A DNA stretch of 38,318 nt from Alphaproteobacteria bacterium GWC2_42_16 (GCA_001767835.1 MEMA01000050.1:1-38318), one strand, 5' to 3'. Positions 14,018 through 17,013 are shown, numbered from the stretch's first letter. Translations and numbers: made by a program. Notes: a model not told the origin generated them from the sequence alone.

Positions 14018-15853
14018 TTAGCTAATTTTTAACTTTTCTTTATTGCTCTCAAGTGGAAATTTAACCCAAAAGATTGTTCCTTTTTTTGCGGAGCTTTTAA
14101 AACCAATCCTTCCTTTCATGGATGTTACGATTTTTTTGACAATATATAAACCTAAGCCCGCGCGTGTATCTTCTTGTCCAGGGACTTTAAAATTCTTTTT
14201 AAAGATATTTTGGCGATATTTAAGAGGAATAGAAGGACCTTGATTGCTGACCTTAAATTCGATGAATTTATGGGATTCTTGTAACTCAACATTTATTGTT
14301 GATTTTTGTTTTGCATAATGGACTGCATTACGCAAAAGATTCCCAACAATTGTTTGTACTTCATCACTGTTGGCTTTGATGAGGGTCAAATAAGGAGGAC
14401 TTTCAAAATTGAAAATGATCTTTTTTTGATTAGCTTCTAATTTTACACCATTAATAAGGTTTGTAACTATGATACTTAAATCCATCTCTTGAAGAGGAAG
14501 GCCTTGTTTTTTGAATTGGCCGCGCGAAAGGCTAAGTAAACTTTGAGAAATATTTTCCATATAGTCACACTTTTCTCGTGTGGCCATAAGGATTTCCTTT
14601 TGTTTTTCCGTTAAAGGCCCAGCGGCACCCTCCACACATAATAAATGGATCGCCATACGGACTTCATTAAGAGGAGGCCGGAAATCATGGGCCAGTCTTT
14701 CATAAGCATCAGCCTTGCTTTCTTCTGAAAAAGGTTTGTGGAGGAGGTCTTGAAGGATAATCAGAATACCTTCAAATTCTAAGTTCTTAGAACTCTCCCT
14801 TTTAATGGGATAGGCCCAAGGAAGGAAAAAGGCTTTTTTCTTGTCTATAAAAAAGGAAAGTACATCCTTTTCTTTATTAGGTTGATAGGTTAAACCTGTT
14901 GCAAGAACGTTATTGCAGATTTCAAGGAGAAGATCTTTCCATTCTTTATTGACATGAAAAAGCGAGGGAACCTTTTTGAAGTCATGGGAAAGATTTAATA
15001 TATGCCGTGCTGCTTTATTGACATAAATGAAATTAGAAATTTTATCCACAATGAGGATCGCTTCTGGCCAAGCATCAAGAGCATCTTTCATGAGCTGGAA
15101 GCTTTCCAGGGCCTTTTGAAGAGAGTCTCTTTGATATCCTTGAAGACGTATGGCCATAAGGTTAAATTCATTGCAAAGCTTTTCAATTTCTTCTGATCCT
15201 TTAAGGTTTATAAGTATTGTTTTCTCTTCCTCTCCAATTTTGCGAATCATTTCAGCCAGCGTATTTAAAGGATCTAAAAAGAGCCCTGAAAAAAACCAAA
15301 AAAGAAAAAGAGAAAAAATTATGGCTGTTCCGCTGCTAACTAATATAAAAATAATAACTTGCGTAATAAATTTTGAGAGTTTTTCTTTTGTTGCAATAAC
15401 TCGATCTAGATTCAATTGTATAATAGCGTTTGTGTTAGACTTTAACTCTTTGTAGACTTTTTCTCCCTGAAAAATGGGAGAGGGGAAGGGCAAAGAAATT
15501 GTCTTCAAATATTTCTGCCAACTTTGATGAAGAGTTTCTGTTAGCTCTTTTTCCCGTGAGCTTTTAAGGTCCTCCTTTTGGAGGAGAAGCTGTTGGTCTA
15601 CCTGAATTTTTAAGGGATTTATTTCTGATGGACGTTCAGACATGATGGTTGGATTTTTGATATAAAGGTCGTTTAGGTCTTCAAGATGTTTATTCAAGTT
15701 AATCATATGAGAGATACTTTTATAATTCTTAACAAGAATAAGATCCGCCTGCTCTTTAATGGAATTGATGAAAGCAATGAAAGACCAAGCAATTAAACCT
15801 ATAATAAGGAGATTTGGGAGTTGAGTGAAAAGGAGCTGTGTCTTAATTTTCAT
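14018..15853 (-). CDS. Membrane HAMP-PAS sensor histidine kinase coupled to the Kdp locus
   Basis: This 611-aa kinase has a transmembrane helix near residues 11-30, a periplasmic domain of about 130 residues, and a second helix near 165-190. HAMP follows, then a coiled segment, then PAS (about 254-370, EAILIVDKISNFIYVNKAAR). The HisKA domain carries His389 in LAHDFRPPLNEVR, and the HATPase_c domain carries an N box (IVGNLLRNAVHYA) and GLGLYIVKK. The G1 motif reads SNQGPSIP, with Asn where Asp is usual. The start at 15853 shares the A of the KdpD stop (TGATG); AAAGGA lies 8 bases upstream. A TTG one codon earlier is the alternative. It stands where the C-terminal half of KdpD would be, yet its transmembrane layout is not that of KdpD. 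No response regulator adjoins it. Confidence 0.85.
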   Translation of the reverse strand: MKIKTQLLFTQLPNLLIIGLIAWSFIAFINSIKEQADLILVKNYKSISHMINLNKHLEDLNDLYIKNPTIMSERPSEINPLKIQVDQQLLLQKEDLKSSREKELTETLHQSWQKYLKTISLPFPSPIFQGEKVYKELKSNTNAIIQLNLDRVIATKEKLSKFITQVIIFILVSSGTAIIFSLFLFWFFSGLFLDPLNTLAEMIRKIGEEEKTILINLKGSEEIEKLCNEFNLMAIRLQGYQRDSLQKALESFQLMKDALDAWPEAILIVDKISNFIYVNKAARHILNLSHDFKKVPSLFHVNKEWKDLLLEICNNVLATGLTYQPNKEKDVLSFFIDKKKAFFLPWAYPIKRESSKNLEFEGILIILQDLLHKPFSEESKADAYERLAHDFRPPLNEVRMAIHLLCVEGAAGPLTEKQKEILMATREKCDYMENISQSLLSLSRGQFKKQGLPLQEMDLSIIVTNLINGVKLEANQKKIIFNFESPPYLTLIKANSDEVQTIVGNLLRNAVHYAKQKSTINVELQESHKFIEFKVSNQGPSIPLKYRQNIFKKNFKVPGQEDTRAGLGLYIVKKIVTSMKGRIGFKSSAKKGTIFWVKFPLESNKEKLKIS

Positions 15854-17013
15854 CAACGGTTTCCTTTTATCTCTTCCTTATGATAACTCATAATAAAAAC
15901 ATCGAGCTCTTTAGATTGCTTGAGGAGAGAATTGAGAATATCTAACCCAAATGCTTCCCGCCACCAGCTGGTTTCTGGGCGGCCAATGATAAGTTGTGAA
16001 ATAGACTCTTTTTTAGCAAAGTCAAGCCACCCGTTAATGCGATTTTCCGTTTTAAGGTGGATAATATGCGCTCCGAGATCTTTTGCAAATTGAATGTCAG
16101 AAAAGAGGTATCGTTGTTTTTCAAGATCAATTTGTTCGGGCGCATCCTCAGAAGTTTCTGCATAGACAACAAACCATTCTTTGCTAAGACGTCCAGCGAG
16201 TCGAGAGGCTTTTTTCAGCATGGTACGTTGGCTCCACCTTTCAGGTAAAAAACATACCATCAGCTGATGACTTGCAAAAATGGCGTCTTTAAGGGCCTCT
16301 TTTTTGGGGATATAGTACCCTCCTTGTTCAATGGCTTCTGCCACTTCGCGCAAGGCAAGTTCTCGTAATTTAATCAGGTTTTCTTCTTTGAAGAAGTTTT
16401 CAAGGGCTAACGTAATCTTTTCTGCCCCATAGATTTGTCCTGATTGCAAACGATCAATGATATCCTCGACGCCGAGATCAACGTTGATGACTTGATCCGC
16501 ATGCTTGAGAAAGCTATCAGGAATTGTTTCATAGATGGTGACGTTCGTAAACTTTTTAACGATATCGCTTAAACTTTCCAAATGCTGGATGTTAAAAGCA
16601 CAGATAACGTTGATTCCAGCCTTTAATAGCTCAATAATGTCTTGATATCTTTTAGAATTACGACAAAGAGGCGTGTTCGTATGCGCAACTTCATCCACGA
16701 TGGCAATTTGAGGCTTGCGTTTGAGGACTGCATCCACATCCATCTCTTCGAGGGCCACACCCTTATAGTCGTATTTTTTCCGAGGAATAAGCTCAAGTCC
16801 CTTCAGGAGTTCTTCAAGTTTTTTCCTCCCATGCGTTTCAACAAAGGCCAGGACAACATCAGCGCCATGCTTCTTTAAGGCATGAGCTTCCTCAAGCATG
16901 CGGTATGTTTTCCCGACCCCAGCTACAGGGCCTGTGTAAATTTTTAGTTTGCCACGCGTGGCCTTTTGAAGAAGAGCTAAAAAGTCCTGATGATCTGGCA
17001 AATCCTTTTTCAT
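15853..17013 (-). CDS. kdpD: KdpD input protein lacking the kinase half (KdpD sensor plus UspA domain)
   Basis: This 386-aa cytosolic protein corresponds only to the N-terminal part of KdpD. It has Walker A GPVAGVGKTYRMLEEA (about 32-47), the family stretch VETHGRKKLEELLKGLE, Walker B IAIVDEVAHTN, and FNIQHLESLSDIV. A UspA-type domain spans roughly 248-375. Canonical KdpD is about 900 aa and continues into four membrane helices, GAF and a histidine kinase; here the frame ends cleanly and a different kinase gene begins with TGATG overlap. Its own start overlaps the kdpC stop by ATGA. It probably senses potassium or turgor-related ligands and signals through the next gene. Short KdpD proteins of this type are known in other bacteria. 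Confidence 0.92.
   Translation of the reverse strand: MKKDLPDHQDFLALLQKATRGKLKIYTGPVAGVGKTYRMLEEAHALKKHGADVVLAFVETHGRKKLEELLKGLELIPRKKYDYKGVALEEMDVDAVLKRKPQIAIVDEVAHTNTPLCRNSKRYQDIIELLKAGINVICAFNIQHLESLSDIVKKFTNVTIYETIPDSFLKHADQVINVDLGVEDIIDRLQSGQIYGAEKITLALENFFKEENLIKLRELALREVAEAIEQGGYYIPKKEALKDAIFASHQLMVCFLPERWSQRTMLKKASRLAGRLSKEWFVVYAETSEDAPEQIDLEKQRYLFSDIQFAKDLGAHIIHLKTENRINGWLDFAKKESISQLIIGRPETSWWREAFGLDILNSLLKQSKELDVFIMSYHKEEIKGNR

What the first reader, a model, noticed from the sequence alone, without database searches (positions are those of the whole stretch)
14018..17013. Split Kdp sensor: KdpD input domain and a different HAMP-PAS kinase, no KdpE
The KdpD gene ends after the sensor and UspA-like domains. 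The next gene, joined by TGATG, encodes a membrane kinase whose architecture (periplasmic loop, HAMP, PAS, HisKA) differs from the C-terminal half of KdpD. No response regulator follows in the same direction. The pair could be a modular potassium sensor in which a soluble ATP-binding input protein tunes a separate kinase. Stand-alone KdpD input proteins are known, but their wiring to such a kinase is poorly studied.
Basis: partly seen in the sequence, partly recalled or inferred. Interest (0 to 1): 0.6.

Follow-up and report, generated by a model that had tools for sequence, protein, structure and literature searches.

The report
Split potassium sensor lacking response regulator
Next to its potassium pump genes this bacterium carries a stand-alone pump-inhibiting serine kinase (short KdpD) and, directly after it, a membrane receptor built like a histidine kinase; the pair is conserved in its relatives although neither the usual response regulator nor the second messenger that controls other short KdpDs is present, so the receptor may talk straight to the serine kinase.

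Summary
Window 14018-17013 (- strand) encodes a 386-aa KdpD that ends after the KdpD and Usp domains and, overlapping by TGATG, a 2-TM/HAMP/PAS/HisKA/HATPase protein. The operon is kdpF-A-B-C-kdpD-kinase. It is not a frameshift: within the order 12 genomes have both genes and 5 have neither. There is no KdpE in the genome, and no diadenylate cyclase in any of 17 order genomes.
The interpretation needs correcting. The KdpD domain is itself a serine kinase that phosphorylates KdpB (Silberberg 2024, E. coli); its catalytic motifs are intact here. Split serine-kinase/histidine-kinase chains are already described. What is unusual: (1) this kinase family differs from KdpD's own C-terminal half; (2) outside this clade it often sits beside a specific NtrC-type regulator, which this clade lacks; (3) the c-di-AMP SxS site is replaced by PxR/K/Q in all members; (4) the H and G1 boxes are eroded; (5) two unrelated partners have lost the phospho-His and the ATPase domain yet kept sensor-HAMP-PAS-DHp.
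Best reading: a receptor that gates the serine kinase on KdpB, with the transcription branch lost or rewired. Inferred, not tested.

The parts
15853..17013 (-). kdpD-N: stand-alone KdpD (386 aa), KdpD serine-kinase domain 20-227 plus Usp domain about 250-376; Walker A GPVAGVGKT, Walker B VDE
   Evidence: PF02702 294 bits; NF038185 KdpD_non_kinase 346 bits, below its 550-bit cut-off; active-site motifs conserved in 24 sequences
14018..15853 (-). KdpD-partner histidine-kinase-like receptor (611-612 aa): TM1, helical extracytoplasmic part, TM2, HAMP, PAS, DHp with His, CA with atypical G1 box NQGPS
   Evidence: overlap TGATG with kdpD
17010..17594 (-). kdpC
   Evidence: PF02669, NF001454
17595..19649 (-). 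kdpB, P-type ATPase subunit; target motif TGES intact
   Evidence: TIGR01497 937 bits; motif
19649..21361 (-). kdpA
   Evidence: PF03814, TIGR00680
21377..21466 (-). kdpF, 29 aa, MVIEYYIGFIVAIFLLGYLIYFLIHVSSM
   Evidence: ORF conserved upstream of kdpA in the relatives
21496..21524 (-). conserved promoter-like element TTGGTT-N17-CATACT upstream of kdpF
   Evidence: element kept in 8 of 9 aligned clade members; no convincing sigma-54 -24/-12 site in the window; function inferred
13598..13942 (-). DUF326 Cys-rich protein; follows the receptor gene in 7 of the 11 loci searched; possibly the last gene of the operon
   Evidence: PF03860; synteny

Best explanation
A two-protein control unit of the KdpFABC pump. 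KdpD-N is the serine kinase that switches the pump off by phosphorylating the Ser of TGES in KdpB when potassium is sufficient (step shown in E. coli and D. geothermalis, inferred here from intact motifs). The overlapping gene encodes its membrane receptor: the extracytoplasmic helical domain senses the envelope or ionic state, HAMP and PAS pass it to a dimeric DHp, and the receptor holds or releases KdpD-N at the membrane next to KdpB (inferred). In this clade the receptor takes over the role played by the TM/GAF part in E. coli KdpD and by c-di-AMP in D. geothermalis KdpD. Phosphotransfer to a response regulator, the receptor's likely ancestral output through a linked NtrC-type regulator, is lost or redirected.
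For: Gene pair: both genes in 12 of 17 genomes, neither in 5; overlapping or near-abutting in nearly all loci. Catalysis of KdpD-N: Walker A/B, the Arg of the adenine pair and KdpB TGES conserved everywhere. No c-di-AMP input: no DAC in 17 order genomes although the search finds it in 11 of 14 controls and in 13 of 13 distant genomes that carry a KdpD; the SxS of the c-di-AMP motif is P-x-R/K/Q in all clade members, whereas all but one of the distant relatives keep S-x-S. No RR: no KdpE-like gene; the linked NtrC-type regulator (56-91% identical at 8 outside loci) is absent, its best hit in the genus being NtrX at 33-36%. Output erosion: H+4 varies over P/K/T/S/A and the G1 box is NxGx[S/L/F/V/Q], whereas the G1 boxes located in 5 other HATPase proteins of the same genome are DxGxG. 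Kinase-dead partners: G005 (447 aa, H to Q) and Planctomycetaceae L036 (459 aa, H to G), no ATPase domain downstream, in separate clades. In L036 a full-length KdpD with a KdpE-like regulator lies just upstream, so transcription is provided for while KdpD-N plus the dead partner are kept.
Against: In 10 of 11 clade members the phospho-accepting His, N box and G2 box are kept, and the ATPase domain is under purifying selection (w 0.10-0.25), so kinase activity is probably still used. No physical interaction of receptor and KdpD-N is shown. The two dead partners come from draft metagenome assemblies, and in G005 the receptor lies on a different contig from kdpD (both at contig ends). No potassium dependence is known. 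Most distant members have a full kinase and some a linked regulator, so the ancestral output was phosphotransfer.
Confidence: 0.45

Rival explanations
1. Ordinary two-component wiring to an unlinked regulator: the receptor is an active histidine kinase that controls kdp transcription through an orphan or shared response regulator elsewhere in the genome; KdpD-N acts separately on KdpB or tunes the kinase.
For: His, N and G2 boxes kept and the CA domain under purifying selection in the clade. Several regulators without an adjacent kinase exist; the REC protein at G000:C25 (L006) has its REC domain matched, or an ORF of the same size, in all 12 Kdp+ genomes and not in the 3 Kdp- congeners. In D. 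radiodurans a separate kinase and regulator control a kdp operon that carries a kdpD-N (PMC5716572). Homologous kinases outside the clade have a linked NtrC-type regulator.
Against: No regulator with a DNA-binding domain is specific to Kdp+ genomes: the three Trans_reg_C genes and NtrX also occur in Kdp- members. L006 has no HTH domain and its REC is also found in the Kdp- genera G001 and G002. H+4 and the G1 box are eroded; two partners lack the kinase altogether.
Confidence: 0.38
2. Relic: the receptor is a decaying leftover of an imported KdpD-N/kinase/NtrC system; only KdpD-N still works, constitutively or gated by an unknown ligand of its Usp domain.
For: The receptor evolves much faster than KdpD-N (mean identity about 45-63% by domain versus 71-85%); eroded motifs; loss of the CA domain in G005 and L036.
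Against: w is 0.01-0.25 in every receptor domain; every genome that keeps kdpD keeps the receptor; HAMP is strongly conserved and DHp kept even in the dead versions.
Confidence: 0.12
3. Canonical KdpD split by a frameshift or sequencing error.
For: None beyond the adjacency.
Against: The second protein is not the KdpD C-terminal half (no 4-TM/GAF; 2 TM, HAMP, PAS), and the same two-gene structure recurs in at least 10 independent assemblies and in other phyla.
Confidence: 0.01

Closest known systems
Short KdpD (KdpD/Usp only) atypical serine kinase, D. geothermalis type (PMC11018627)
   Same: Domain content, Walker A/B serine-kinase motifs, location downstream of kdpC, no KdpE
   Different: No diadenylate cyclase in the order; SxS of the c-di-AMP motif lost; a receptor gene is translationally coupled to it
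Split ASK + TM/GAF/DHpCA histidine kinase (Acidobacteriota, Chloroflexota; PMC11018627)
   Same: Serine-kinase and histidine-kinase parts on two chains
   Different: Here the second chain is 2-TM/extracytoplasmic helices/HAMP/PAS, not the KdpD C-terminal half; no KdpE
D. radiodurans kdpD-N with separate sensor kinase and RR (PMC5716572)
   Same: Truncated kdpD in the kdp operon, separate kinase
   Different: There the kinase and RR form a divergent operon and the kinase represents the C-terminal half of KdpD; here the kinase-like gene is in the operon and there is no RR
PnpS/WalK/PhoR-type HAMP-PAS histidine kinases
   Same: Architecture; best NCBIfam hits (PnpS 135 bits, WalK 126 bits, far below cut-offs); top Foldseek hit is a WalK-YycH model
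   Different: Sensor domain, operon partner KdpD-N, atypical H and G1 boxes, no linked RR in the clade
DivL-type non-canonical histidine kinases (own knowledge; PDB 4q20 among the Foldseek hits)
   Same: A kinase scaffold used as a signalling scaffold rather than for classical phosphotransfer
   Different: DivL acts in the cell-cycle phosphorelay; here the proposed target is a P-loop serine kinase

Membership tests
Canonical KdpD/KdpE two-component system | KdpD, Usp, 4 TM, GAF and DHpCA on one chain | tested here: not met
   386-aa protein ends after Usp; next gene has HAMP/PAS, no GAF or KdpD-type TM domain
Canonical KdpD/KdpE two-component system | OmpR-type response regulator KdpE | tested here: not met
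   9 REC proteins in the genome; those with a DNA-binding domain are CtrA, an EnvZ-partnered OmpR type and NtrX; genome 97% complete
KdpD atypical serine kinase (ASK) | Walker A G-X5-GKT, Walker B DE, adenine-coordinating Trp/Arg | tested here: met
   GPVAGVGKT, VDE, Arg of DRLQSGQIY; Trp replaced by Tyr
KdpD atypical serine kinase (ASK) | KdpB target TGES in the cognate pump | tested here: met
   TGESAP in KdpB, invariant in all sequences covering it
KdpD atypical serine kinase (ASK) | Phosphorylates KdpB | not testable with these tools
   biochemistry needed
c-di-AMP-controlled short KdpD | Diadenylate cyclase in the genome | tested here: not met
   0 of 17 order genomes; found in 11 of 14 controls and 13 of 13 distant KdpD carriers
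c-di-AMP-controlled short KdpD | SXS-X20-FTAXY motif (Ser and Tyr needed for binding in S. aureus) | tested here: not met
   P-x-R/K/Q in place of S-x-S in all clade members
Split ASK + TM/GAF/DHpCA kinase | Second chain is the C-terminal half of KdpD | tested here: not met
   HAMP, PAS, HisKA, HATPase architecture
HisKA histidine kinase | Phospho-His, N box, G2 box | tested here: met
   H390, N506/N510, GLGL; lost in G005 and L036
HisKA histidine kinase | Canonical G1 box DxGxG and H-E/D-x-x-T/N | tested here: not met
   NQGPS and HDFRP
HisKA histidine kinase | Autophosphorylation and a cognate regulator | not testable with these tools
   no linked regulator in the clade

The most novel reading that the evidence does not exclude
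A histidine-kinase-like membrane receptor whose output is not a response regulator but a soluble P-loop serine kinase (KdpD-N) that acts on the pump itself: a transporter regulated after translation by a receptor/serine-kinase pair, with kinase-dead receptor versions having arisen at least twice.
Probability: 0.4. Interest if true: 0.78.

Novelty: new variant of a known kind. Interest (0 to 1): 0.55.

Why it matters
The discoverers of the KdpD serine kinase leave open how it is controlled and what happens in species that lack both the full-length sensor and other known regulation (PMC11018627). This clade removes two known inputs at once (no c-di-AMP synthesis or SxS site, no KdpD TM/GAF part) and keeps one coupled receptor gene, so control of the serine kinase can be tested in a two-protein system. 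If the receptor gates KdpD-N, a histidine-kinase scaffold has been turned into a receptor for a serine kinase acting directly on an ion pump.

Tried and rejected
(1) Frameshifted KdpD: rejected, see rivals. (2) ydaO or other riboswitch upstream: Rfam finds only a tRNA in the window. (3) Sigma-54 promoter upstream of kdpF: my first core test used wrong positions; corrected; the recurring TGGC-N7-TTGC-like hits about 85 nt before kdpA lie inside kdpF codons, so rejected; the window's own best hit (2 mismatches, -368) does not recur in relatives. (4) L006 REC protein as the cognate regulator: REC found by sequence or matching ORF size in 12 of 12 Kdp+ and 0 of 3 Kdp- congeners, but also in two Kdp- genera, genome reduction confounds it, and it has no DNA-binding domain; left open as a rival. 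(5) The 734-739-aa KdpDs of Planctomycetota looked like possible fusions to this receptor; the sequence shows KdpD/Usp followed by a KdpD-like TM and GAF-like part and a truncated DHp, and the blast found no receptor similarity, so no fusion evidence. (6) Plasmid collection: no close homologue of the receptor. (7) A promoter/terminator scan gave no more than shuffles. (9) Structure prediction covers single chains only, so the KdpD-N/receptor interface was not modelled.

Full report
What is there. On the - strand the window holds kdpF (21377-21466), kdpA, kdpB, kdpC, a 386-aa KdpD and a 611/612-aa histidine-kinase-like protein, closely packed. KdpD ends after the PF02702 domain and the Usp domain. 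It scores 346 bits against NCBI's model 'KdpD-like non-kinase potassium sensor' (below that model's 550-bit cut-off). The kinase-like gene starts in TGATG over the kdpD stop. It has HAMP, PAS, HisKA and HATPase domains, and the AlphaFold model shows a helical extracytoplasmic part between two TM stretches, PAS, DHp and CA (Foldseek's best hit is a WalK model).

It is real and conserved. In the order (17 genomes held) 12 genomes have a PF02702 protein and a homologue of the kinase; the other 5 have neither. In 10 of the 12 the two lie side by side; in G005 and G014 both lie at contig ends, consistent with an assembly break. The loci from public genomes show the same order with overlaps of 1-4 nt in most, a gap of 8 nt in L029 and about 290 nt in L026. 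More distant versions (about 25% identical kinase, 47-55% KdpD) occur in Thermodesulfobacteriota/Myxococcota-labelled assemblies, Riflebacteria and Planctomycetota. A frameshift is excluded.

No KdpE. The genome (97% complete) has nine REC proteins. Those with DNA-binding output are CtrA, an OmpR-type regulator with its own EnvZ-like kinase (also in this window) and NtrX; a further OmpR-type DNA-binding protein of 177 aa has no detectable REC domain. These kinds occur equally in Kdp- genomes, so none is a dedicated Kdp regulator.

What KdpD-N does. Silberberg et al. 2024 (PMC11018627) showed that the KdpD domain of E. coli KdpD is a serine kinase that phosphorylates KdpB Ser162 and inactivates the pump at high K+, that D. 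geothermalis short KdpD does the same under c-di-AMP control, and that short KdpDs and split serine-kinase/histidine-kinase chains are widespread. So the stand-alone KdpD is an effector, not only an input. In the window protein Walker A (GPVAGVGKT), Walker B (VDE) and the Arg of the adenine pair are intact, the Trp is Tyr, and KdpB keeps TGES. That it phosphorylates KdpB here is inference from homology.

The known control is missing. No member of the order has a diadenylate cyclase (0 of 17; the search rings in 11 of 14 control genomes), whereas all 13 distant genomes with a KdpD do. The c-di-AMP motif of S. aureus KdpD is SXS-X20-FTAXY, with Ser244 and Tyr271 needed for binding (PMC4686210). 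The distant short KdpDs keep S-x-S at the exact spacing from the aromatic strand (WFVVY-like), except L035 (S-x-P) and two Planctomycetota sequences (S-x-G); every clade member has P-x-R, P-x-K or P-x-Q instead. Loss of the site goes with absence of the enzyme. Whether the distant proteins bind c-di-AMP is untested.

The receptor's own output is eroding. Outside the clade the kinase is often linked to one NtrC-type regulator, 56-91% identical between L037, L039, L040, L044 and Planctomycetota L179, L180, L181 and L187. This regulator has no counterpart in the order: in the window's genus the only hit per genome is NtrX at 33-36% identity, and the best hit in the order is 40% in G001, a Kdp- genome of another genus. 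No clade locus has a regulator nearby. In the clade the residue at H+4 (the Thr/Asn of the phosphatase motif, own knowledge) varies over P, K, T, S and A, and the G1 box is NxGx[S/L/F/V/Q] (DxG kept in L029 only), while the G1 boxes located in five other HATPase proteins of the same genome are canonical. Still, His, N box and G2 box are kept in 10 of 11 and the CA domain is under purifying selection, so catalysis is altered rather than plainly dead.

Two partners have lost the kinase. In G005 the partner (L133:2478-3821, 447 aa) has Gln for His and stops after DHp; the next gene is the DUF326 gene that also follows the receptor in the window and several relatives, so position supports orthology. 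In Planctomycetaceae L036 (11122-12501, 459 aa) the His is Gly and the protein ends after DHp; a full-length KdpD and a KdpE-like regulator lie just upstream of kdpA. No convincing remnant of the ATPase domain lies downstream of either, and the two sit in different clades of the receptor tree, so the losses are independent. Sensor, HAMP, PAS and the DHp hairpin are kept. In G022 (L036) transcription can be served by KdpD/KdpE, yet KdpD-N plus a kinase-less receptor is retained. This is the strongest hint that the receptor's lasting partner is KdpD-N.

Most likely mechanism. The receptor senses an envelope-side or membrane signal and controls, through HAMP/PAS/DHp, the access or activity of KdpD-N towards KdpB. 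Shown by sequence: gene pairing, intact serine-kinase site and target, missing cyclase and SxS, missing KdpE and NtrC-type regulator, eroded H and G1 boxes, two kinase-less partners. Inferred: serine-kinase activity, physical coupling, the nature of the signal. The main rival is ordinary phosphotransfer to an unlinked regulator. Probabilities are about 0.45 against 0.38; a relic receptor takes 0.12.

Novelty. Split Kdp sensors are known, so this is a new variant of a known kind: another receptor family, combined with absence of the two known controls. The searches of the open-access library found no description of this combination; papers behind subscription were not searched.

Noticed in passing
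window 13598-13942 (-): DUF326 Cys-rich protein (114 aa, copper-storage-like by own knowledge) directly follows the receptor gene; conserved at that place in 7 of 11 loci searched, including after the kinase-less receptor of G005.
   Followed up: partly
L006 / G000:C25:25316-25660: Orphan REC protein with a conserved C-terminal domain of about 160 aa that no Pfam model matches; seen (by sequence or ORF size) in all 12 Kdp+ genomes, absent from 3 Kdp- congeners, but its REC also occurs in two Kdp- genera.
   Followed up: partly
L132:7550-8083: 177-aa OmpR-type DNA-binding protein with no detectable REC domain, present in nearly all genomes of the order.
   Followed up: no
L171-L177 (Planctomycetota): A class of 734-739-aa KdpDs with Usp and a KdpD-like membrane/GAF-like part but no kinase domain, following kdpC.
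   Followed up: partly
L011 (G000:C4): PAS histidine kinase with Ser in place of the phospho-His (SSELRSPL), DivL-like.
   Followed up: no
L037:14340-18075: Two NtrC-type regulators 91% identical to each other lie downstream of the Riflebacteria KdpD-N/kinase pair, the first preceded by a separate four-helix-bundle sensory protein (13313-14284).
   Followed up: no
window 13077-13451 (+): Short secreted-looking protein with internal repeats (DPGHVMLPGGGAVDS / EPGQVILPGGGEVDT), no Pfam match.
   Followed up: no
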